Origin: a virus
IMG/VR virus record: IMGVR_UViG_3300005647_000003
Span: 1 to 35,864 of that record
Length of the DNA stretch: 35,864 nt
Reading direction: 5' to 3' (one strand)
Shown: piece after piece, positions 5,424-34,643 of the stretch
How positions within the stretch are numbered: the stretch's first letter is position 1
Layout: each line of letters begins with the position of its first letter
Made by a program: the position numbers and the translations under genes
The notes under the pieces: generated by a model
What the model was told of the DNA's origin: nothing
Databases searched by the model: none
The model's input: only the letters and a program-made list of their open reading frames with translations

Positions 5424-8400
5424 ATGGGCCTTTTTAGCAGCATATCCAGAGCGTTCCAAAAGGCAGATTTTTGGGACAAAGAAGAAAACCAGCGCCAACA
5501 GGCTCAATGGGATCGTGAGGATGCTGAAAAATTAGAAGCAAAACGCAGCGCTGCGGTAAATAGTATTTTCTCAAGTTCTTCTAGCCCTTATTCTCGTACC
5601 AACACTAATAACTACAGTCAGCCGTCAAATCAGGGACCTCTTGCTCCATCTGTTTTAGATGCTCAAGCTCAGGAACAACAGAAACCACTAGAGAAAAAGC
5701 CTCTTGCTGCTTTTAACAACCCTTTATTCTATCAACAAGAGCAAGCTCCTGTGAGTCCAGAGCAAGAAAAAACTCGGATTTTAGAGAAGCTTTACGAGGC
5801 TAACTTAGAGAAAGCCAAGAAACAAACCAACGATGGAGAGAGTTGGCTTAGTCGTAATTTGGTGAACAGGGGCGCTGTGAATAATCGTGCTGAAAGTCGC
5901 GCTAGAACTATGGCTGCTCAAGATTATATGAAAAAGTACGGCACAGGAGACTCCGTTTTATCAGAGTATATGAAGAAAACGACCGACGATGGGGCTGCTG
6001 AATCTGCTAGATTGAAAAAGGGTATAGACCACCTTAATGTTGTTAGTGATAGATTATATAAAGTTGCAGAGAAAGGCTCGTATGTGCCTGGCTTTGGTAC
6101 GGCTTTCAACTTGGGCTTGGCAGGGTCTGAAAAACTAGCCTCGAGCTTGGGTAATGAAGAATATGCAGATGAATTAGGGGCTATGAGGACTAAAGTTGAT
6201 TTTGGTATGACACAGGAAGAGTTCGACGCGCTCGACCCAGAAATGCAGAATAAGCTGAGAAATCTCCAGAAACTAGGATTAATCGCATCACCCCTAGATT
6301 TAGTCGGTTCTGGCGCTCTTGCCAAGTCTGCAGTGGTTGGTTCAGGTAAAGCCGCTTTTAAACAGAGTATAACCCAAGGTACAAAGGCTTATGCGACTAA
6401 ACAAGCAATCAAGGCTGGAGGGAAAACAGCTATAAAAGAATCTGCTGTGCCTTTCGTTGCCGGTACTGCGCTCGGAACCGGAGCTCAAGCTTATCTCGGG
6501 GGGACAGAAAATTTGAGTATTGCCGACGCTCTTAAGGCTGGTGTTACTGGTGCTGGTTTGAACCAACTAGTCCCTACTATGAATCCTAAAAAAATGGGAG
6601 TTACCTCTGCTATTGATAGCGCTACAGATGCGAGCACTACTGCCGCTAAGACTATCGAAGCACCAGAGTTGCCGGGTATAATAAAGAAAACAGGGGCAGA
6701 ATCGAAACCATCTATCGAGATCGAAGCAGGGGTGAAATCGACTAATGCAGCCAAAATCCCTGACCCAACCAGTAATTTTGCACTTGCTAAAGCGGCCGAC
6801 TCTATCAGCAGTGAAGTCCCTATGGCTGACTTTAAGAACCCAGTGGATGGGTCTCAACTAAGGAAGATGGACCCTAGAACCGAAGAATTAGACCGGGCTA
6901 TGGATATCGTGGCCTCCGCCGACTCAGCAGAACAGCTCAACAGAGCCCAGGCTACTGTCGACTCTCTTAGAGAGCAAGGTGTGGTCAGCTCGGCCGACTC
7001 AGCCCCAACACCAGAAGTAGCTCCAGTCGGGGGCGTTGACTCTAATGGCAACCCATTATTGGTGTCTGATGCCCAAGCAGCGCAAGAAGCCCTTGACAAT
7101 GGAATAATCCCTCAGGCTGAGGGTAGTGTTTCTGCTTCTCGCGAAGCTGAGATGACTGCCGCTAAAGAGGCTTTATTAGCCGAAGAGTTTAAAACTCCTG
7201 CTCCAAGGACTCGTCAGCAAGTTATAGAGAGGATAGTAGATGATGGAGCTAGAGCAGAAGTTGAAGAGACTTTATTGCCTAAAGGTAGTGCACTCAATAT
7301 AGAAGAGGTTCAGGCAGAGGCTAAAATTCGTGTGAGACAAATGGATGATGCTGCTTTAAGTGAAAAATTCGCCAGTGAGATAGTTATTAACAACCCTAGC
7401 GAGTATTTCGAGACAGTAGCGGCAGTTGATCGATTAGGCCGTTCAAACACTCCTGAGGGCGTTAGAGCGCTAACCAACGCTATGGAGAGTATCCAAATGT
7501 TCTCTAGCAACGCTGGTCGCGACTTGAGAATGGTTAAGGAATTATTTAAGAATATGCCAGCTCCAATGAAGAAAAACTACATGATAGACCGAATCGAGAA
7601 GAAGTTGGGTGCTGATTTGCCAGACGCTGAAAGAGCTTCGCTTATAGAAATGATAGATAGCGCCACTGGCGAAGAAGTCTCTGTGAACAGCTTGAAAGAT
7701 AGTTTAGACGCTTTGAAAAACGATATTGAGACAGGAATAGAAGTAGACCCAGAAGTAGGTTCTGCACTTATAAAGAAATACCGAGAAGCTCAAAGCAACT
7801 ATGAATATCTACAAGGTGATGTTTGGGACTATTCTCAGTCGCTAATGCCTAAAAGCAGTGTAGGTAAAAGAGTAGCGCAAGGAGTCAAGACTTCTATGCT
7901 TTCTTCTCCTTTGAGGAGACTTTCTGACCCTCTAGTGACTGGTGTAACTCAAATGGCAGATGTTCGTGACAGCGCAGTTTCTGGCTTGATAGGTAAAGTC
8001 TTGAACAAGGCTACCGGCAACTCTGGTCAATACCGCGAGTTCGCCCCCTCAGATGTTAAATCCTTAGTAAAAGGCAACCTTGAGGGCGCAGTTGAGAGTG
8101 CGAAAACCTTAAAAACAGATAGAAGACGAGTGCCTGATTTCATGGGAGAACTCCAAAGAGCTACTCGTGCAGATTCACAGAGTACAAGAAGAACCAGAGC
8201 AGGTCGTTTTGTTGGTGATATGACTGAGGCTGCTACCAAGATGACGCAGGGTTCAGAAGTGATGAGGGCTCGTGAGTTAGCTCGACAGGATGGTCAAAAA
8301 TTGAAGCTAAAGGGCAAAGATTTAGACCTTTACACAGATATCGGAGAGGTTACTCTGAGCACCAAACAGCGACTAGAGGCGCAAGATTTCCACATGAAGA

Positions 8401-10106
8401 CCAACAACCTGCACCAGACTAAGCTAAATTCAGTCATAACCGGTATGCAGGGGCAAATAGAAAGAGCCTTGCCTAATGCTGGACCTCTTATTAATGCCGC
8501 GACTCTACCTTTCAAAAGCTGGCAAGCAGGTAACCTCACAAGGCTCGTAACAGACAAGAATATGGCATACAATGTCTATAGCACTATTAAGAATATGCGT
8601 AATGGCAACACTCAGGGGGCTATTGACGATATTGGTCGATTTGCGGGCAACGCTTCTGAATTGGCTCTATTGGGCTTAGTCCTGTCTCAGTCTGGAATGA
8701 TATCCGACACTGACGATAATGGCGAAGATTTCAACGGTCCATTCGTCCAGGTTGCGGGCAAATCTATCCCTGTTTCATCTCTAGGACCCTCAATGGTAAA
8801 TGTTATAGGTGGTCATACAATAAGTAAGTACATGGACAGTGATGGCGACCCAGCAGTGTTCAACGAGTTCGCAGAGCAGTTTATATCTTCTACAGGGGCA
8901 TCTAACTTGGTTGGTGACAACCCACTACAGGAGATGGTTTCAGGTTATGGAGACTTTAGCGATAGAGCCGTTAAAGCTACAGGGGACATACTCAGGAGAC
9001 CTATCCCCTCTGCTCTAACTGATGTGAACTCAGTAATAGACCAGACAGGCTTGAACCCTACAGGGGAGAGGTCTGATACTAGGGTCGAAAACCCTGATGG
9101 CACTAAAGACTATCTGAGCACAGAGCTGAATAAATTTAAGAATAAAATCCCTGGCTTATCACAAACACTGCCTAGAGCAGAGGGCAAGAACGCCAAGAGC
9201 CCTCTGGACAGGGTGACTAACGGCACTAGTGCCGTTGAAGCCAACGAAGAAACTCGGATACAGGAGAGCAAAGACCTGAGTCTCGGAGACCAGAAACGAC
9301 AGCTAGACAAGCTAAAAATCCCAACAACCGCAGAACGACTAGCAGACTTGGCAGAGGAGGGTGACTACAAAAGCGCTGTACTTGGAGCTCAATACAAGGT
9401 CAATGAGGTTGCGGCTGACCCAGATTCTACAAACGGAGAAAAGCGCCGGGCGCAAGAAAAGCTTGAAGATTACCAATTTGGTGAAGAATATGGCTATATT
9501 CCTAGTTCTGACAAGGCTGTTGATGCTCGAGCCGAAAGAGGCGAATATGATGCCGCTATAGCTGGTTATGAGTATAGACTTGCGAGGGCTAAGTTAGACC
9601 CTGATGCTAAAGACAGCGATATAAAGGCAGATGAGGACGAAATTGGTCGTTATAAGATATATAGAGATGGTGAAGTAGAACCAGAAATGGTGACTGCTTA
9701 TGAGAAAAGGTCTTCGTCTGACGGGGGTATTGGAGTTACTAAGTGGCGAGAGTTGATGGCATCTGGAGATGCTGATGAAGTTGCTTATGCTGAGAAATTA
9801 GCTAAACTTGATGAAGCGCTGTTTGATGCTGGACTTGTAGAGAAGAAGAAGTATTATTACTTAGGAGGCAGTTCAGGCTCAAAGGGTAGGAGTAGTAGTG
9901 GTGGTGGTAGTGGTGGTAGTGGCAAGGCTGCGAAGTTCTCTACGAATATTGCCACAAATAACGCTAAAGGTTATAGTTTTACTCCACTGCAAGCTAAAGG
10001 TGCTACATATTCCCAGGCACAATCTAGCATCCCACAACTACAGAAAGTCGCGAGCTATAGTCGAAAATTAAAAAAGATTGGGGTTAACAAAGGAGGTAGA
10101 GGGTGA
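5424..10106 (+). CDS. Large internal virion / DNA-ejection protein
   Basis: A 1560-residue protein, in the size range of the large internal core proteins of podoviruses. The N-terminus is Gln/Ala/Ser-rich; about residues 280-370 contain Gly/Ala-rich semi-hydrophobic helices (LVGSGALAKSAVVGSGKAAF); about residues 1080-1110 include a hydrophobic stretch (ELALLGLVLSQSGMI) that could enter a membrane. The C-terminus has charged helices with repeated 'EYGYIPSSDKAVDARAERGEYDAAIAGYE'-like pieces, then a Gly/Ser tract (SGSKGRSSSGGGSGGSGK). No lysozyme or transglycosylase active site is evident. A GGGAG lies upstream of the ATG. It overlaps the adaptor gene by four bases. Most likely ejected with the DNA to form a channel. 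Confidence 0.7.
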   Translation: MGLFSSISRAFQKADFWDKEENQRQQAQWDREDAEKLEAKRSAAVNSIFSSSSSPYSRTNTNNYSQPSNQGPLAPSVLDAQAQEQQKPLEKKPLAAFNNPLFYQQEQAPVSPEQEKTRILEKLYEANLEKAKKQTNDGESWLSRNLVNRGAVNNRAESRARTMAAQDYMKKYGTGDSVLSEYMKKTTDDGAAESARLKKGIDHLNVVSDRLYKVAEKGSYVPGFGTAFNLGLAGSEKLASSLGNEEYADELGAMRTKVDFGMTQEEFDALDPEMQNKLRNLQKLGLIASPLDLVGSGALAKSAVVGSGKAAFKQSITQGTKAYATKQAIKAGGKTAIKESAVPFVAGTALGTGAQAYLGGTENLSIADALKAGVTGAGLNQLVPTMNPKKMGVTSAIDSATDASTTAAKTIEAPELPGIIKKTGAESKPSIEIEAGVKSTNAAKIPDPTSNFALAKAADSISSEVPMADFKNPVDGSQLRKMDPRTEELDRAMDIVASADSAEQLNRAQATVDSLREQGVVSSADSAPTPEVAPVGGVDSNGNPLLVSDAQAAQEALDNGIIPQAEGSVSASREAEMTAAKEALLAEEFKTPAPRTRQQVIERIVDDGARAEVEETLLPKGSALNIEEVQAEAKIRVRQMDDAALSEKFASEIVINNPSEYFETVAAVDRLGRSNTPEGVRALTNAMESIQMFSSNAGRDLRMVKELFKNMPAPMKKNYMIDRIEKKLGADLPDAERASLIEMIDSATGEEVSVNSLKDSLDALKNDIETGIEVDPEVGSALIKKYREAQSNYEYLQGDVWDYSQSLMPKSSVGKRVAQGVKTSMLSSPLRRLSDPLVTGVTQMADVRDSAVSGLIGKVLNKATGNSGQYREFAPSDVKSLVKGNLEGAVESAKTLKTDRRRVPDFMGELQRATRADSQSTRRTRAGRFVGDMTEAATKMTQGSEVMRARELARQDGQKLKLKGKDLDLYTDIGEVTLSTKQRLEAQDFHMKTNNLHQTKLNSVITGMQGQIERALPNAGPLINAATLPFKSWQAGNLTRLVTDKNMAYNVYSTIKNMRNGNTQGAIDDIGRFAGNASELALLGLVLSQSGMISDTDDNGEDFNGPFVQVAGKSIPVSSLGPSMVNVIGGHTISKYMDSDGDPAVFNEFAEQFISSTGASNLVGDNPLQEMVSGYGDFSDRAVKATGDILRRPIPSALTDVNSVIDQTGLNPTGERSDTRVENPDGTKDYLSTELNKFKNKIPGLSQTLPRAEGKNAKSPLDRVTNGTSAVEANEETRIQESKDLSLGDQKRQLDKLKIPTTAERLADLAEEGDYKSAVLGAQYKVNEVAADPDSTNGEKRRAQEKLEDYQFGEEYGYIPSSDKAVDARAERGEYDAAIAGYEYRLARAKLDPDAKDSDIKADEDEIGRYKIYRDGEVEPEMVTAYEKRSSSDGGIGVTKWRELMASGDADEVAYAEKLAKLDEALFDAGLVEKKKYYYLGGSSGSKGRSSSGGGSGGSGKAAKFSTNIATNNAKGYSFTPLQAKGATYSQAQSSIPQLQKVASYSRKLKKIGVNKGGRG

Positions 10107-10837
10107 CAAATTTAGAACAAATACAAGCTTTTACTCAGGAAGTAAATTTAACTATCTATAATCGTTTGATAGTAGATATAGGTGAAGCTGACGGCCAAGA
10201 GGCAGTCGCTAAGACTACTATATGGTTGAATCTATTTCTCGATGAATTAGCTTTTGAAAAGAACCCTGACGATACTCCTGTTAATTGGTTGTTTTTGAGG
10301 AAAAACGACACTGAAATAGGTGAAATTGACGAAGCGACCGACACTTTCGATTTACCTAGAGATGCCTTGAGGTTAGTGTCCGAAGAGGATAGACCCCTTT
10401 ATATAACCCAAGATGGCACAGTTATCAGTACTTGGGATGTTGTTGAGCCAGACCAACTGACCTCAAGAAATGACTACATTAATAGAGATAACAGAGTTAG
10501 CTATGTTGGAGAGCAAATAGTATTCTCACGACCCCTGAATGACACTGAAATAGGGGGTACTATCTTTGCAGATGTAGTGAATAAATTCCCTCAACTAGTC
10601 AGTACCAGTGGTTCTGAAAATGTAGATTTATTCAAATTACCTATCCCTAGACAGTTACTCGTGCTTGGTACAGCGAAAAATGCCAGTTTACCGGATATCG
10701 TTCAGGGTGGATTATCTCCATCCTACGCTCAAAAGTACGACAACTTGTTAGAGGGGGTCAAAGCTGCGAATATGCAGAGTGCGGCTGCTAATCAGGTAGT
10801 TGTAGAGGATTATAGTGATATAACGGGAGTCTACTAA
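10103..10837 (+). CDS. Head-tail adaptor / tail tubular protein A-like
   Basis: A 244-residue protein starting at GTG with a strong AAGGAGG upstream. The N-terminal part (QAFTQEVNLTIYNRLIVDIGEADG...ETTIWLNLFLDELA-like helices) followed by a beta-rich part (TFDLPRDALRLVSEEDRPLYI ... IVFSRPL) is typical of podovirus adaptor proteins (P22 gp4 or T7 gp11 type), which sit between portal and nozzle. Its place directly before the nozzle gene supports this. The assignment is by size, secondary-structure style and neighbourhood; sequence similarity to a named family member is not obvious. Confidence 0.65.
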   Translation: MTNLEQIQAFTQEVNLTIYNRLIVDIGEADGQEAVAKTTIWLNLFLDELAFEKNPDDTPVNWLFLRKNDTEIGEIDEATDTFDLPRDALRLVSEEDRPLYITQDGTVISTWDVVEPDQLTSRNDYINRDNRVSYVGEQIVFSRPLNDTEIGGTIFADVVNKFPQLVSTSGSENVDLFKLPIPRQLLVLGTAKNASLPDIVQGGLSPSYAQKYDNLLEGVKAANMQSAAANQVVVEDYSDITGVY

Positions 10838-12921
10838 TGGCGATCACCAAACCAGTAAAAGTGCCAACAAAGAAGATCGGTAGCCTTGATCTTGATGGTT
10901 GGTCTGGTGGTCTGTTCCTTAATGGGGAGCAGCTGGCTGCGGGCAATCAATTTATAGAGAGTAAAAATGTTGAATTATCTCAAAAAGGTCGTCTTCGTAA
11001 CAGAAAATCTCTACAACAATGGTTGCCAGATGCAATAGATACTGTCTATGAAGTCTCTGCAGTTGTGGCTCAAGGGGGTGTGTATAATTTTGTGGCTGAT
11101 GATGGAAAGATTAGATTCTGCCAAGACAATGATCCAGGCTGGACAGAGTGTGGTGGGGATAACTCTGTAACCACCAACAATGGAGGTAAACCAACATTCT
11201 TAAGGGCTTTAGACGCTCTCCTTATATTAAATGGTAGCAATGGGGATAAGCTTGCCTATGTCGATCTGACTAGCCCTACTTTTGATGTTGTTAAGTATGA
11301 TTTAGTAGCCAACCCTACTACAGCACTTTCTGCATCACCAACAGGTATCACAAACTCCGGCAGTTTTAAGATATACGCAGGTTATACCTATAGCTCTGCA
11401 ACAGGAGAAACCGAAATCTCTGATATCTTAGAGTACACAATAAATAAGCCTAGAGACCAATGGGACGAAGATGGCTCTGAATATTTGACATTCACTCGAC
11501 CGGGGACTGCCCCTGCTGGCGCAACATACTGGAACTTTTATATAGCTTTAGCCGCTAATGGTGGCTCTATCCAGTCGTCTGACATGCTTATGCTCGCCCC
11601 CGGACTCGACCTGAACACGAGCAAATTTGTCGACAACAACACCCTTGCAATAGATGTGGGCAGGGGCAACCCCCCTACAGTAAACAGCACAGACGGCCCC
11701 AGAGCCGACTTGGGCATAGAAACTGACGGACGGCCTATATTGTTCGGAATCAAGGACGAAGACGGCAACGACACAGGCGAAATCTACATCGGTGGTGACG
11801 GGGACAAAGCGCTCGACTTCTCTTCTGCTAATGGCGGTTTTCGGGCGGAGCCGTCAAAGGGGACTAATTACTTCCCCTCAAATGTTGTAGGGTTTAGGAA
11901 TAACCAGGGTATCCCATCCTTAACTGTGTTATTTAGCAACACTCAAGGTATCTCAAAGCAGGGTATTTTAGAGCAACAGACCATTAATTACGGCAACCAA
12001 TCCTTTGTTGTATGGGGCTTTACAGAGCAGAACTACGGGGCTGCAGGTGTTTCATCACCTTATGGAGTTGTGAATTACAAGGGGCAACTAATGTTCGCAT
12101 CTGCTGATGGGCTTGTTTCTATGGATACTAAAGCCCAGCTACAGAATGTTCTCCAGATAGACAATGTAGACCAAGATATTGAAGAGTATTTCCGGAGAGT
12201 GAATGTATCTGCATTACCAGAGATAGTTGGCGCTGGTTGGAATAATAAGTTTCACTTCATTGTCCCTGCTTATGGGCACACCACCCCAACAGAAATATTG
12301 ATTAGAGACTTGGACAATGGTGGCTCGTTCTACACTCTCGAAATTGAATCTCAGTGGATAGGTGTCGTATCACCCCCAAGCTCGGCCGCTTTTGTGTATA
12401 TCTGCCAAGGCAATAAAATACTTAAACTCTACGATACATTCGGTACAGTTGACTATACTAGCGAGGGGGCAAAGCCTTTTGCGACTTCTGCAACTGGAGC
12501 TATGGTAGGGGTTAACGATGCCCACAACGCATATCAAGCTATGGTTCAAGCAGTTTTCTACATCCTGGACATAGTTGGGGAGATAACTGTTGGAATCCGT
12601 TATAAAGACCAGAATGAGCGAATCAGGGTTAAAGAGAAGACCTTTGAGGGTCCTACTTATGTAAGGTCTTCATCTGGCGGTTTTTCTGACCCAATGTATG
12701 TGTACAATAGTCAGCCATCGCCTAATTTGCAACAATCGACCCAGTTCACAGAGTCGTCATCTTCGTTGAATAAAGTCGATAAAAGAATAAAAGTCCCTAT
12801 TAATGACTTAGCCTCAGAGGTTCAATGGTACTACAGGACTCCGGTGGGATACAATTCATATCTACTCCGCACAATCTCTTACGAGGGAGAGAATCTTGGA
12901 GTTAAGCCGGACTTAAGGTAA
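10837..12921 (+). CDS. Tail nozzle / stabilisation protein
   Basis: A 694-residue beta-rich protein. The N-terminal signature 'W-GGL....QLAAGNQFIESKNVELSQKGRLRNRKS' (about residues 22-58) matches the pattern of podovirus nozzle proteins (P22 gp10/T7 gp12 type), where G-G is followed by N-V and R-R before a series of propeller-like strands. Later segments (NYKGQLMFASADGLVSMD, NNKFHFIVPAYG, ILIRDLDNGG) also resemble beta-propeller blades. The start overlaps the adaptor stop (TAATG) with GGGAG upstream. It forms the end of the short tail tube through which DNA leaves. Confidence 0.78.
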   Translation: MAITKPVKVPTKKIGSLDLDGWSGGLFLNGEQLAAGNQFIESKNVELSQKGRLRNRKSLQQWLPDAIDTVYEVSAVVAQGGVYNFVADDGKIRFCQDNDPGWTECGGDNSVTTNNGGKPTFLRALDALLILNGSNGDKLAYVDLTSPTFDVVKYDLVANPTTALSASPTGITNSGSFKIYAGYTYSSATGETEISDILEYTINKPRDQWDEDGSEYLTFTRPGTAPAGATYWNFYIALAANGGSIQSSDMLMLAPGLDLNTSKFVDNNTLAIDVGRGNPPTVNSTDGPRADLGIETDGRPILFGIKDEDGNDTGEIYIGGDGDKALDFSSANGGFRAEPSKGTNYFPSNVVGFRNNQGIPSLTVLFSNTQGISKQGILEQQTINYGNQSFVVWGFTEQNYGAAGVSSPYGVVNYKGQLMFASADGLVSMDTKAQLQNVLQIDNVDQDIEEYFRRVNVSALPEIVGAGWNNKFHFIVPAYGHTTPTEILIRDLDNGGSFYTLEIESQWIGVVSPPSSAAFVYICQGNKILKLYDTFGTVDYTSEGAKPFATSATGAMVGVNDAHNAYQAMVQAVFYILDIVGEITVGIRYKDQNERIRVKEKTFEGPTYVRSSSGGFSDPMYVYNSQPSPNLQQSTQFTESSSSLNKVDKRIKVPINDLASEVQWYYRTPVGYNSYLLRTISYEGENLGVKPDLR

Positions 12922-23936: not shown

Positions 23937-24183
23937 AACCTATAGCGATGACTTGTTGCACGCGCTGATGCGCTACAACACTGTGGTCGCAGAAGATCTC
24001 AACTCCACCCCAGATGAAGTCCGCGAGGCGCACATCTGCATGGTAGAGATTCAATCAGAACGGCGTTATCGCCGGGAAGAAAGAAACACCTACCAACGCC
24101 GGGAGCGCATACTCAACCTGTTTGGATTCACCCAAGGAGGTGGTGGAGTAAAGAGCAGTGAACAACTGCAACTCCATATCTAG
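23929..24183 (+). CDS. Small helical hypothetical protein
   Basis: An 84-residue protein from the ATG at 23929 (MYETYSDDLLHALMRYN), chosen over an ATG 42 bases upstream because GGAAGAGGAG lies just before it. The chain is mostly charged helix (EDLNSTPDEVREAHICMVEIQSERRYRREERNTYQRRERIL). Last rightward gene before the convergent junction. Function unknown. Confidence 0.6.
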   Translation: MYETYSDDLLHALMRYNTVVAEDLNSTPDEVREAHICMVEIQSERRYRREERNTYQRRERILNLFGFTQGGGGVKSSEQLQLHI

Positions 24184-24240
24184 TACGCCCCGACAAGGCC
24201 AGCATGGGATGAAATCACTTCATCGTGGTCTCATGCTAAA

Positions 24241-24277
24241 CAAAAAAGCCCCCAGACTATCATTGGTCTGGGGGCTT
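24241..24277 (-). terminator. Strong terminator of leftward operon (second of tandem pair)
   Basis: A perfect 12-bp stem AAGCCCCCAGAC / GTCTGGGGGCTT (24246-24257 with 24266-24277) and a six-base T run on the minus strand (24242-24247). The hairpin could also slow rightward transcription, but no T run follows it on the plus strand. Confidence 0.88.
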
Positions 24278-24284
24278 CATAACC

Positions 24285-24328
24285 TGCTAAAAAATAAAGG
24301 CCGACTGATCTCGCAATACAGTCGGCCT
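24285..24328 (-). terminator. Terminator of leftward operon (first of tandem pair)
   Basis: A perfect 10-bp stem AGGCCGACTG / CAGTCGGCCT (24298-24307 with 24319-24328) followed on the minus strand by TTTATTTTTT. Together with the next hairpin it closes the leftward early operon. The 175-base gap 24184-24358 also holds the inverted pair AGCATG/CATGCT around GATGAA/TTCATC (24201-24237). Confidence 0.85.
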
Positions 24329-24358
24329 AGGCGTGGATGAAACCTTATCTATTATACA

Positions 24359-24631
24359 TCAACGCTTGCGCTTATGTCCAGTAGGTCTTCTCTTTTTCCC
24401 CGCATCAGGATTAAAACTCCGAGTACTTATAACAGAGGAGATGTCGAACGCCCCTCCGCAACGACAGCTCCGACCCCTGGTGTAACCGTTCAGCTCGACA
24501 TGCATCTCCAGCGTGCCCTCAATCTCTGTCCAGTCATAACAAACAAGACACTGTGCCATCACGAAATACTCATCCGTTTTACTTACCTGGGTGTCCCCCA
24601 TCAAGGCTCTAATCTCATCTACCTCGCTCAT
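24359..24631 (-). CDS. Small zinc-ribbon-like protein
   Basis: A 90-residue protein with a CLVC pair near residue 28 and a second pair CRCG near residue 56, as in a zinc ribbon, and a strongly basic end (GKKRRPTGHKRKR). The start overlaps the upstream stop (ATGA). Last gene of the leftward operon. It probably binds nucleic acid; no named family recognised. Confidence 0.72.
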   Translation of the reverse strand: MSEVDEIRALMGDTQVSKTDEYFVMAQCLVCYDWTEIEGTLEMHVELNGYTRGRSCRCGGAFDISSVISTRSFNPDAGKKRRPTGHKRKR

Positions 24632-26780: not shown

Positions 26781-26801
26781 AATTGTCTCCTTATCTTATT
26801 T

Positions 26802-26960
26802 AATTAGTAAAGCCAGTGCAAGTGACTAGCGTTTTTAAGTGGCGTATTTTTAATATCCAGACCGGCTGGAGTGCGCGTTGGCTGCCACCGTCATGGTTGC
26901 CCAACTAGCGTAGCGCTGACTAGTTAAGTCAGTTACTCACCTGCAACAGCTTTACTAATT
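26802..26960 (-). ncRNA. Structured element B (159 nt) with long closing stem
   Basis: On the minus strand the element starts AATTAGTAAAGC and ends GCTTTACTAATT, a perfect 12-bp stem. The stem continues inward through two wobble pairs and a mismatch to TGCAGGTGA / TCACTTGCA, about 23 pairs in all. Inside are hairpins CTGACT-TAACT-AGTCAG, GTTGG/CCAAC and TCCAG-CCGGT-CTGGA. No reading frame of note is present. It ends 21 bases before the SSB-like start codon, leaving just room for its Shine-Dalgarno. Confidence 0.62.
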
Positions 26961-26978
26961 TGTTAATTTACTTTATTT

Positions 26979-27138
26979 ATATGGACTGCTATCAGGGGTC
27001 GGCTTCGATCTGATTTTTCCTTGCCTAAGCGCGAATTCTATCACCATTATTGGCTGGTTTGTCTACTGGCTGGGATCTTGGTATAAAACTTTCTTAAGGA
27101 GTTCTATACCTCAACCGACCACCCATAGCAGTCCATAT
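26979..27138 (-). ncRNA. Structured element A (160 nt) with perfect 14-bp closing stem
   Basis: ATATGGACTGCTAT at 26979-26992 pairs perfectly with ATAGCAGTCCATAT at 27125-27138. Inside this stem GGTCGG pairs with CCGACC, and a further hairpin GGTATA...TATACC (27080-27110) has an additional AACT/AGTT step. It begins six bases after the stop of the Sak4-like gene and is followed by element B after 18 bases. Both elements are followed on the plus strand by TTGTTAATT. Function unknown. Confidence 0.65.
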
Positions 27139-27144
27139 TGTTAA

Positions 27145-31515: not shown

Positions 31516-32112
31516 TTATTTACCCCCGTAGTGTGTTACATAAATATAATCACCTCTGAAAGGCATTACAGAAATTCCAATGGTCTCATGGTTGGGGTTA
31601 AACATATTTTCCGCATGGCTAGGGCTTAACTCCCACTGTGGGACTACATCGTCAACGCTGTCAAAGTCCCAAGCCAAATTCTCTGAAACATCTTTACCCC
31701 AGCCTAAATTCCTAGGGAATGAATACCAGGTTGTGCCGTTGGGGTTGTTATGTGCCCAATAGTCAAACTCGATATGGTCCAAAGCTTTTAAGTCTGCTGA
31801 TTGCTCTAGTATTGAATTATATACTACAGCCTCAAGCCCTCGCTCTGCTCTTATCTCGTTAATGTCTTCAAATATGTCTGCCTCAAGGTCGTCTACAGTT
31901 GGGGGCGCTACTTCTGGCTCGTTGACTGTCTCGTCTACTACTTCGTGATGTATACAGGCGCTGTCTCCGTTAATGTCGATGGCCTTGTATTCGTCCTCGA
32001 AACAGTCAAACGATGTTGAGGGTTTCTGGCCTCCGCCTGTCAACGCCACTAGAACGATGATAGATACTACCAACGAGACTAGTGTTATTATTAGTTTTTC
32101 TCTAGTTGTCAT
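31516..32112 (-). CDS. Membrane-anchored CAP/SCP-domain protein (YkwD-like)
   Basis: A 198-residue protein. Residues about 7-24 form a membrane anchor (LIITLVSLVVSIIVLVAL) after a short basic start; a linker with two cysteines (DCFEDEY, DSACIHHE) follows. The C-terminal part is a CAP domain: DINEIRAERGLEAVVYN, the YWAHNNPNGTTWYSF histidine segment, VSENLAWDF and SHAENMFNPNHETIGISV. These are the ordered motifs of bacterial CAP proteins, which act outside the cell. AAGGAG precedes its ATG. Early expression suggests changing the infected cell surface rather than lysis. Confidence 0.87.
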   Translation of the reverse strand: MTTREKLIITLVSLVVSIIVLVALTGGGQKPSTSFDCFEDEYKAIDINGDSACIHHEVVDETVNEPEVAPPTVDDLEADIFEDINEIRAERGLEAVVYNSILEQSADLKALDHIEFDYWAHNNPNGTTWYSFPRNLGWGKDVSENLAWDFDSVDDVVPQWELSPSHAENMFNPNHETIGISVMPFRGDYIYVTHYGGK

Positions 32113-33260: not shown

Positions 33261-33578
33261 CTATACCCGTTCTACATATTTAATATTTACTCTCCGGCCT
33301 AATAGCTCTATGAAATTAGCTCCAAAACTGGCATTCGCTAATAGTTTTCTCAAGCTGTCAATTTCTGTATCGTTGAAGCCATTGCTTCGCATCCAGTGTC
33401 TAAAATACTTTGCAGTGGTTCTGCTGTAATTGTAGTGCTGGCTAATAGTTATCTCGCCCCCTTTCCATTTTGCTATTGGTGTTTCATAGCTTTGAAATAT
33501 TTCTTCGTCTTTCGATTGAATAATGAACTGGTTCGCAACTTTATTTCCGTTGCTGTTGGTTATGTTTGTTACTTTCAT
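33261..33578 (-). CDS. First protein of leftward early operon, hypothetical
   Basis: A 105-residue basic protein (KWKGGEITISQHYNYSRTTAKYFRHWMRSNGFNDTEIDSLRKLLA). The middle part could be a helix-turn-helix-like DNA-binding region. AAAGG lies 11 bases upstream of the ATG. It is the first gene after the structured leader and the palindrome at 33612, so an early regulator is a plausible role. Not recognised by family. Confidence 0.72.
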   Translation of the reverse strand: MKVTNITNSNGNKVANQFIIQSKDEEIFQSYETPIAKWKGGEITISQHYNYSRTTAKYFRHWMRSNGFNDTEIDSLRKLLANASFGANFIELLGRRVNIKYVERV

Positions 33579-33611
33579 ATTGAAGTAAGCCTTTCATATT
33601 ATTTTATTAAT

Positions 33612-33628
33612 TGTTGTCATTGACAACA
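33612..33628 (-). promoter_or_regulatory. Palindromic operator-like site upstream of first early gene
   Basis: TGTTGTCA-T-TGACAACA is a perfect palindrome with a one-base centre. On the minus strand TTGTCA could be a -35 with AATAAT 17 bases downstream, a weak promoter. A related half-site GACAAC recurs at 33923-33928. The site would suit a dimeric repressor such as the ribbon-helix-helix protein encoded at 27746. Confidence 0.55.
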
Positions 33629-34200
33629 TGAGAGCCACCGGGGGTGGGCACCGTTGACCCTCATATTATCAATGAATTTATCTAGTAGCGAGCAGGGTGG
33701 AGACCACTCATCAGGGGGGATAAAATGGCCTCCGCCTTACTCGCTACTACTGTTCCGCACCGAGACTCGCAGGTCGTTGTGCCGAACTTATCATGTAGCT
33801 AGTGCAAAGCACGGCTGTTGGCATAAGGTTCTAATGGTATCTTAAGAGGTATAAACAGCAAAATTATCTCTCTCGCCTCTATGCTTTGCAACAGCTACAT
33901 GATTTAAATCTAATACAACAATGACAACACAAGCTGTATTATTCTATGTTTATACATAAGCAGTTATAGCCTCGGCATCTGTACTTATATTGCCAGTGTT
34001 GTATTAGATCGATGAGAACTACACCACAAGCAAAGATTCTGTTATTGGTTGTGTCGTGGTAGTTCTGTTTGTTAAGGTGATTCTGTCCTAGTTGTCGAGC
34101 CTGTAGCGTTACTATGGTTGTTTTGTAACGGTTAGTGTTCCGTTGGTGCTAGGGGCTTGAACTGTTAGGTGCTTGTCGTCAGTGTTTGTTGCTTGCTGAC
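33628..34200 (-). ncRNA. Large structured leader RNA (about 570 nt)
   Basis: Between the promoter at 34207-34235 and the first early gene there is no convincing frame; instead eight stems follow each other. Arms: 34196-34200/34178-34182; 34154-34162/34091-34101; 34060-34066/34015-34021; 33997-34009/33908-33920 (13 bp perfect); 33893-33903/33790-33800 (11 bp plus 8 bp inside); 33779-33787/33752-33760; 33740-33749/33683-33692 (10 bp plus 9 bp inside); 33660-33664/33628-33632. Gaps between elements are 2 to 24 bases. The predicted transcription start is the first base of the first stem. Size is comparable to ornate phage RNAs such as ROOL, but I cannot match it to one. Confidence 0.62.
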
Positions 34201-34206
34201 ATAACC

Positions 34207-34235
34207 AGAATACATGGCTGGGTCATGTTTGTCAA
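34207..34235 (-). promoter_or_regulatory. Leftward early promoter
   Basis: On the minus strand TTGACA (34235-34230), a 17-bp spacer and TATTCT (34212-34207). With a normal distance the transcript starts near 34200, exactly where the first hairpin of the leader begins. This is the best promoter for the leftward operon of 33.6-24.4 kb. Confidence 0.82.
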
Positions 34236-34643
34236 TACTTTTTTATGTTTAATATTGTGAGGGGGATTTTGCGGACACTTGTAAGTGTCTACAAATTAGT
34301 AATTCTTACAACAGTTGGGATTGGGGTTTTTAACTGGGGTGTGTGGTTGTACTCAAATCGTATAAGATACCCCTGTTTCGTTTGTAGACACTTACGGTGT
34401 CACTATTAATAAAAAACATATATATGTATATACACTCTTTTTTATTTAAAACTAAGACCGTAAGTGTCTACAGATTTTCATACATATTATGCCATGATTG
34501 TATTGCGACATGGTGGCTACCCCTGTTAACGCAGGTCGTACAAGATACATTGTGCGACATAGAATGGTATCTGACCCCTGTTACTGCATTTCGGATATAT
34601 CAATCTGTGTCAATGGGTGGGTGTATATATATGTCGCGGCCCC
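34236..34643. repeat. Control region with 13-bp and 9-bp repeats
   Basis: GTAAGTGTCTACA occurs at 34281-34293 and 34460-34472 and inverted at 34383-34395; two of these are centres of small palindromes (GACACTT-GT-AAGTGTC at 34274-34289; GACAC-TTACG-GTGTC at 34387-34401). ACCCCTGTT occurs at 34369-34377, 34519-34527 and 34574-34582, the last two preceded by GCGACAT. An imperfect palindrome GTCGTACA...TGTGCGAC lies at 34536-34559. Repeated sites of this kind fit an iteron-type origin or a cluster of regulator sites. No supported gene. Confidence 0.6.

What the first reader, a model, noticed from the sequence alone, without database searches (positions are those of the whole stretch)
33628..34200. 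Large, densely structured RNA at the head of the leftward early transcript
A consensus promoter (TTGACA, 17 bp, TATTCT) points to a start near 34200. From there 573 bases have no credible gene but contain eight stems in series, several perfect over 10-13 bp with arms up to about 100 bases apart, separated by only 2 to 24 bases. The first stem starts at the predicted first transcribed base. Known ornate phage RNAs (GOLLD, ROOL) are of this size and kind, and HK022 put RNA shows that a structured early leader can alter RNA polymerase. Whether this belongs to one of these or is new is open.
Basis: partly seen in the sequence, partly recalled or inferred. Interest (0 to 1): 0.85.

Follow-up and report, generated by a model that had tools for sequence, protein, structure and literature searches.

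The report
Mismatch hairpin array heading phage transcript
The early messenger RNA of this uncultured phage begins with about 620 untranslated bases folded into a row of very stable hairpins, most with a mismatch about one helical turn above the base, and related phages carry similar hairpins just before their genes; they are probably cutting or ribosome-access signals rather than a giant free-standing RNA.

Summary
The minus-strand leader (34200 to 33579) has no credible gene and folds far better than shuffles (z -9.2; -10 to the first gene). The strength lies in four hairpins, A-D (34010-33617); the first ~190 nt are weakly structured. There is no Rfam match and no sequence homologue.

Related phage contigs show what it resembles: many begin their early operon with unrelated sequence that forms the same kind of hairpin. 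It has 9-14 basal pairs, a mismatch (mostly A/U opposite C) at positions 10-15, then more pairs and a variable 27-146-nt cap. In single-hairpin leaders the base usually sits 19-24 nt before the start codon. The window has three such hairpins plus an uninterrupted one, and two more just before its SSB gene (z -7.4). Sixteen such helices pair at 159 of 160 basal positions with 4-5 pair types each. The pattern fits RNA, not DNA.

The geometry resembles T7 RNase III sites. Best explanation: RNase III-type processing or 5'-end-protecting hairpins, here in tandem. Cleavage is untested, and translational control without cutting is a serious rival. New variant of a known kind.

The parts
34207..34235 (-). 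early promoter P1 (TTGACA-17-TATTCT)
   Evidence: relatives have promoters at the same place
33579..34200 (-). untranslated structured leader of the early leftward transcript
34178..34200 (-). weak 5-bp hairpin at the predicted 5' end (GUCAG/CUGAC), contains AAGCAA
34015..34066 (-). weak hairpin
   Evidence: z -2.5
33907..34010 (-). hairpin A: 14 bp, C.U mismatch, 13 bp, ~50-nt cap
   Evidence: z -6.4
33790..33903 (-). hairpin B: 12 bp, U.C mismatch at 13, 10 bp, ~70-nt cap
   Evidence: z -5.5
33752..33787 (-). small hairpin between B and C
   Evidence: z -2.3
33683..33749 (-). hairpin C: 12 bp, A.C mismatch at 13, 2 bp, C.A, 11 bp
   Evidence: z -8.0
33617..33675 (-). hairpin D: 21 uninterrupted pairs including wobbles; base 39 nt before the first gene
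   Evidence: z -6.1
33261..33578 (-). first gene of the early operon (105 aa, unknown function)
26781..27144 (-). second structured non-coding region of the same kind, between an ATPase gene and SSB
   Evidence: z -7.4
26979..27138 (-). hairpin ssb1: 14 bp, G.G at 15, U.C at 18
26802..26960 (-). hairpin ssb2: 14 bp, U.C at 15, 9 bp; base 22 nt before SSB start; shares AGCUGUUGCA/UGCACURGCU with hairpin B
34266..34480 (.). inverted repeats of TTTGTAGACACTTAC upstream of P1 (operators or iterons), also in relatives

Best explanation
The leader is a tandem array of long RNA hairpins, three of four interrupted by a central mismatch, in the sense strand of the early polycistronic transcript. They belong to a structural class used across this phage family, usually as a single hairpin whose base lies about 20 nt before a start codon. 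Most likely each hairpin is an RNase III-type processing and protection signal: host RNase III binds the two-turn duplex, the central mismatch directs or limits the cut, and the downstream mRNA gets a defined 5' end about 30 nt before the start codon, as at T7 R sites and the lambda N leader. In this phage the leader carries four in a row, which would shed ~60-115-nt fragments, and two more precede SSB. Shown: stable hairpins, their recurrence, the restricted mismatch position, the near-fixed distance to the start codon, sense-strand selection. Inferred: binding and cutting by RNase III and any effect on expression.
For: Fold z -9.2 and domain folds. Long helices 7 against 0-1 in shuffles in the window; 30 against 2 in 26 family sequences. 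First mismatch at 10-15 from the base in the leader and operon hairpins; tally over 15 hairpins: positions 1-10 hold 137 Watson-Crick, 12 G.U and 1 mismatch, positions 11-16 hold 11 A.C, 5 U.C, 4 others. A/U opposite C makes up about three quarters of the mismatches (my count 18 of 24) against 7 of 60 in unrelated phage loci, where first mismatches begin anywhere from position 1 (binomial p ~8e-11 for a 15% background). Sixteen hairpins: 159/160 basal positions paired, 4-5 pair types per position, re-dealt arms mean 73, max 111. Sense strand: basal G.U 12 against A.C 0, centre 9 against 13, Fisher p 6e-4. Base to ATG 19-24 nt and mismatched C to ATG 31-37 nt in L053, L058, L067, L070, L072, L031 and window ssb2. 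Phages fetched later: L129 A.C at 13 and base ~21 nt before ATG; L117 mismatch at 13 and base 19 nt. T7 early hairpins upstream of 0.3, 0.5, 1 and 1.3 fold as stem, interruption, stem. T7 R1.1 is a 49-nt stem cut on one strand, and full pairing makes the cut double (PMC8708148).
Against: No cleavage data and no known host (genome scans empty). T7 sites have small loops, here 27-146 nt. RNase III is not known to me to require A/U opposite C. The element is not universal: short or weakly folded leaders in L059, L060, L062, L069, L102; none in L107; no hit at the threshold in L111, L121, L137. L136, L002 (5364-5537) and window hairpin D have no central mismatch, L117 has G.G, window ssb1 G.G first. 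Hairpin D lies 39, not ~20, nt from the start codon, and L071's lies further too. The profile was defined on most of the hairpins it was counted on; only L117, L129 and L136 are independent.
Confidence: 0.5

Rival explanations
1. Translational control without cutting: the hairpin abuts the 5' edge of the ribosome footprint and shields or exposes the ribosome-binding site, or is an operator for a phage RNA-binding protein that reads the mismatch.
For: Near-constant 19-24 nt from base to ATG; a base preference at the mismatch; identical AGCUGUUGCA and UGCACURGCU around the mismatch in window hairpins B and ssb2.
Against: Tandem arrays far from any start codon (A-C lie 105-330 nt upstream) are not needed for this; no RNA-binding protein recognised among ten early proteins.
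Confidence: 0.27
2. A put-like RNA that binds RNA polymerase and makes it ignore terminators.
For: Sits at the head of the early transcript, next to the promoter.
Against: put is ~70 nt with sequence shared between copies; here hairpin sequences are largely unrelated even within one genome, and two sit ~7 kb downstream in the operon.
Confidence: 0.07
3. A free-standing ornate non-coding RNA (ROOL/GOLLD-like) that happens to start at P1.
For: Size and density of stems.
Against: No Rfam match, no homologue in phage records or fetched relatives, no intrinsic terminator found between leader and first gene, length varies several-fold at the same place in relatives.
Confidence: 0.08
4. A DNA-level feature: origin hairpins or inverted-repeat mobile elements.
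For: Iteron-like inverted repeats lie just upstream.
Against: Wobble pairs are tolerated along the helix but A.C only at the centre, which marks the early-sense RNA strand; copies share almost no sequence; position tracks start codons.
Confidence: 0.04

Closest known systems
Phage T7 early RNase III sites (R0.3, R0.5, R1, R1.1, R1.3)
   Same: Hairpins in the early polycistronic mRNA, mostly a short way before start codons, two roughly 10-bp helices split by an interruption (folds; PMC8708148).
   Different: Cutting is shown for T7, unknown here.
Phage lambda N leader (nutL and RNase III hairpin)
   Same: Structured leader between the early left promoter and the first gene, processed by RNase III (own knowledge; the review mentions RNase III regulation of N mRNA).
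   Different: No nut site, N gene or sequence similarity found here; the lambda leader fold differs.
HK022 put RNA
   Same: Structured RNA near the start of the early transcript.
   Different: ~70 nt, two stem-loops, shared sequence, acts on RNA polymerase.
ROOL and GOLLD RNAs
   Same: Large, stem-rich, in phages.
   Different: Conserved families often near tRNA islands, forming nanocages (PMC12286853); no match here.

Membership tests
ROOL / GOLLD / other Rfam RNA families | matches the family covariance model | tested here: not met
   nothing at gathering score; only chance-level miRNA/snoRNA hits at E<=10 (that both families are in Rfam is own knowledge)
ROOL / GOLLD | location near a tRNA island (common, not obligatory) | tested here: not met
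   no tRNA in the window
HK022 put | ~70-nt pair of stem-loops with sequence shared between copies | tested here: not met
HK022 put | suppresses termination through RNA polymerase | not testable with these tools
   needs a transcription assay
RNase III processing site (T7 R type) | about two turns of duplex with a central interruption | tested here: met
   (hairpin D lacks the interruption)
RNase III processing site (T7 R type) | lies a short way before a start codon in the early operon | tested here: met
   for relatives and window ssb2; window hairpins A-C lie further off, D 39 nt
RNase III processing site (T7 R type) | small terminal loop | tested here: not met
   caps mostly 27-146 nt
RNase III processing site (T7 R type) | cut by RNase III in vivo and in vitro | not testable with these tools
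   needs enzyme assay; host unknown

The most novel reading that the evidence does not exclude
A new class of phage RNA module defined by structure, not sequence: a duplex with an A/U.C mismatch about one helical turn from its base, recognised by an unknown host or phage factor, placed at a near-fixed distance before early genes and multiplied into arrays in some phages.
Probability: 0.3. Interest if true: 0.75.

Novelty: new variant of a known kind. Interest (0 to 1): 0.6.

Why it matters
It suggests that phages far from T7 and lambda use the same trick, structured hairpins that set the ends or translation of early mRNAs. It gives a rule (mismatch 10-15 bases from the helix base, about 31-37 nt before the start codon) with which such elements can be sought in uncultured phages although their sequences share nothing. 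Sequence-based RNA searches miss them.

Tried and rejected
Rfam scans of the window and relatives: nothing. Nucleotide searches with the leader in phage records and fetched relatives: nothing beyond promoter-sized matches. Host search through capsid and ATPase proteins in genome contigs: nothing, so the host is unknown. Exact search for the motif shared by hairpins B and ssb2: 14 hits, all chance, without the outer helix. tRNAs in relatives' leaders: none. The conserved GAAAGGGTGGGAAGG string overlaps a coding or ribosome-binding region of another gene, not this element. Long-helix density alone is not specific: unrelated phage loci also exceed shuffles, 31 against 8; mismatch type and position are what separate the family. 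A covariance model of the leader was not built because no alignable homologue was found.

Full report
Setting. The window is a complete or nearly complete circular phage record: its last ~50 bases repeat its first, and a DNA methyltransferase gene spans the join. It has rightward virion genes and a leftward early operon (helicases, exonuclease, SSB). The only named relatives by portal protein are Microbacterium and one Arthrobacter phage at about 22-25% identity. The host is unknown. Helicase and ATPase searches gave a family of uncultured phages with the same early operon: L053 72% helicase identity, L054-L056 67-70%, G001 61%, L058-L065 ~52-55%, L066-L072 ~42-45%, L002/L027 ~40-42%.

The observation. 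From the promoter at 34235-34207 the minus strand runs about 622 bases to the first gene at 33578 with no plausible reading frame. The RNA folds with z -9.2, -10.1 to the gene. The plus strand is weaker by the same test (z -5.1). The strong part is four hairpins in series: A 34010-33907, B 33903-33790, C 33749-33683, D 33675-33617 (domain z -6.4, -5.5, -8.0, -6.1). The first ~190 nt fold only slightly better than chance.

Relatives. No relative shares sequence with the leader, not even L053. Between L002 and L027 the nucleotide alignment breaks off about 75 bases into the leader, so the leader is exchanged or turns over quickly. Yet at the same place, between promoter and first gene, many relatives have a stable long hairpin. 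A scan for helices of at least 17 of 20 weighted pairs with loops up to 150 found 7 on the window's whole minus strand against 0, 0, 1, 0 in shuffles. Four are A-D, two lie in the 364-base gap before SSB (27138-26979, 26960-26802; region z -7.4) and one is in the repeats upstream of the promoter. In 26 family sequences it found 30 against 2 in shuffles; apart from four inside coding frames they lie in leaders, operon gaps or promoter-proximal repeats.

A common anatomy. Laid out from the base, the leader and operon hairpins agree: 9-14 pairs, a mismatch, then a second helix, then a variable cap. Over 15 hairpins, positions 1-10 hold 137 Watson-Crick pairs, 12 wobbles and one mismatch; positions 11-16 hold 11 A.C, 5 U.C and 4 other mismatches. 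In unrelated phage loci scanned the same way, first mismatches start anywhere from position 1, and A/U.C makes up 7 of 60. Each basal position carries 4-5 different pair types across 16 hairpins, with 159 of 160 cells paired, against a mean of 73 when arms are re-dealt. Because the hairpins are not alignable homologues, this shows a shared architecture, not descent. Each helix was chosen for being paired, so the paired count is partly built in; the restricted mismatch position and type are not. Wobbles occur along the helix but A.C only at the centre and above (Fisher p 6e-4). On the opposite strand or in DNA the constraint would look different, so selection appears to act on the early-sense RNA.

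Position. Where one hairpin precedes a gene, its base is usually 19-24 nt before the start codon and the mismatched C 31-37 nt before it: L053, L058, L067, L070, L072, L031 and the window's hairpin before SSB. L071's hairpin lies further off. Two phages fetched afterwards fit: L129 (A.C at 13, base ~21 nt from ATG) and L117 (G.G at 13, 19 nt). A third, L136, has two hairpins without a central mismatch. The element is not universal: L059, L060, L062, L069 and L102 have short or plain leaders, and L107 has a related first gene without such a leader.

How it probably works. A two-turn duplex with a central interruption shortly before a gene in an early polycistronic phage mRNA is the anatomy of T7 RNase III sites. 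The T7 hairpins folded here show stem, interruption, stem. From the annotated start codons and cut positions known to me (890, 1468, 3138, 6447; only 5887 for R1.1 was confirmed in a paper), T7 cuts fall 28-35 nt before the start codons of 0.3, 0.5, 1 and 1.3, close to the 31-37 nt here. In R1.1 the imperfect stem gives a single-strand cut that matures and protects T7 mRNAs (PMC8708148). I therefore favour processing and end protection by RNase III (about 0.5), then ribosome-access or protein-operator control (0.27). Free-standing ornate RNA, put-like antitermination and a DNA element are unlikely. Nothing here shows cutting, and why the mismatch should favour A/U opposite C is unexplained.

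What is special in the window. It has the longest such leader seen, with four strong hairpins in tandem, plus two before SSB. Hairpins B and ssb2 share AGCUGUUGCA and UGCACURGCU exactly around the mismatch although their lower helices differ. That could be sequence-specific recognition, an old duplication, or chance: a shared 10-mer between two regions of this size is not rare, but its sitting at the mismatch in both is. A search of viral contigs for that motif found only chance matches.

Verdict. The feature is a new variant of a known kind of phage mRNA hairpin, with a structure-defined signature that deserves testing.

Noticed in passing
L031 6046-6070, L066 4795-4820, L067 5109-5135 and 11105-11130, L069, L070, L072, L137 3243-3275; window 34200-34178: Early transcripts of this family often begin with a conserved AAGCAA(n)GGAACGC element 10-15 bases after the -10 box, at both the first and an internal early promoter; the window has the shorter AAGCAAC. 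Possibly a nut-like or initiation element.
   Followed up: partly
L053 ~6030-6095; L031 ~7145-7190; also L066, L070, L072: A conserved non-coding stretch of the form TGACC..GGCCGGAAGTC..AAAA..CGGCTCACCA that could form an H-type pseudoknot, upstream of a small membrane-protein gene; not seen in the window and no Rfam match in the loci scanned.
   Followed up: partly
L002 5345-5575: Operon gap with an uninterrupted 26-bp stem closing a ~120-nt domain (fold z -5.6), base 35 nt before the next gene.
   Followed up: partly
L053 5080-5106: The cap of the leader hairpin holds GCUGGCGGUUCAAAUCCGCUCCCUCCA, which looks like a tRNA T arm and acceptor end; ARAGORN calls no tRNA.
   Followed up: no
window 34266-34480: Inverted and direct repeats of TTTGTAGACACTTAC upstream of the early promoter, with related repeats in L053, L058-L060, L065, G001, L051, L102: probable operators or replication iterons.
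   Followed up: partly
window 24041-24400: Strongly structured region (plus strand z to -8.4) near where rightward and leftward genes converge, with a 13-bp terminator-like hairpin on the minus strand.
   Followed up: no
window 5424-10106 and 10103-12921: A 1560-aa protein with no PHROG or Pfam match, followed by 244-aa and 694-aa proteins with no PHROG match (the 694-aa one has no Pfam match either).
   Followed up: no
window 31516-32112 (-): Early-operon protein with an N-terminal hydrophobic segment and a CAP (cysteine-rich secretory) domain.
   Followed up: no
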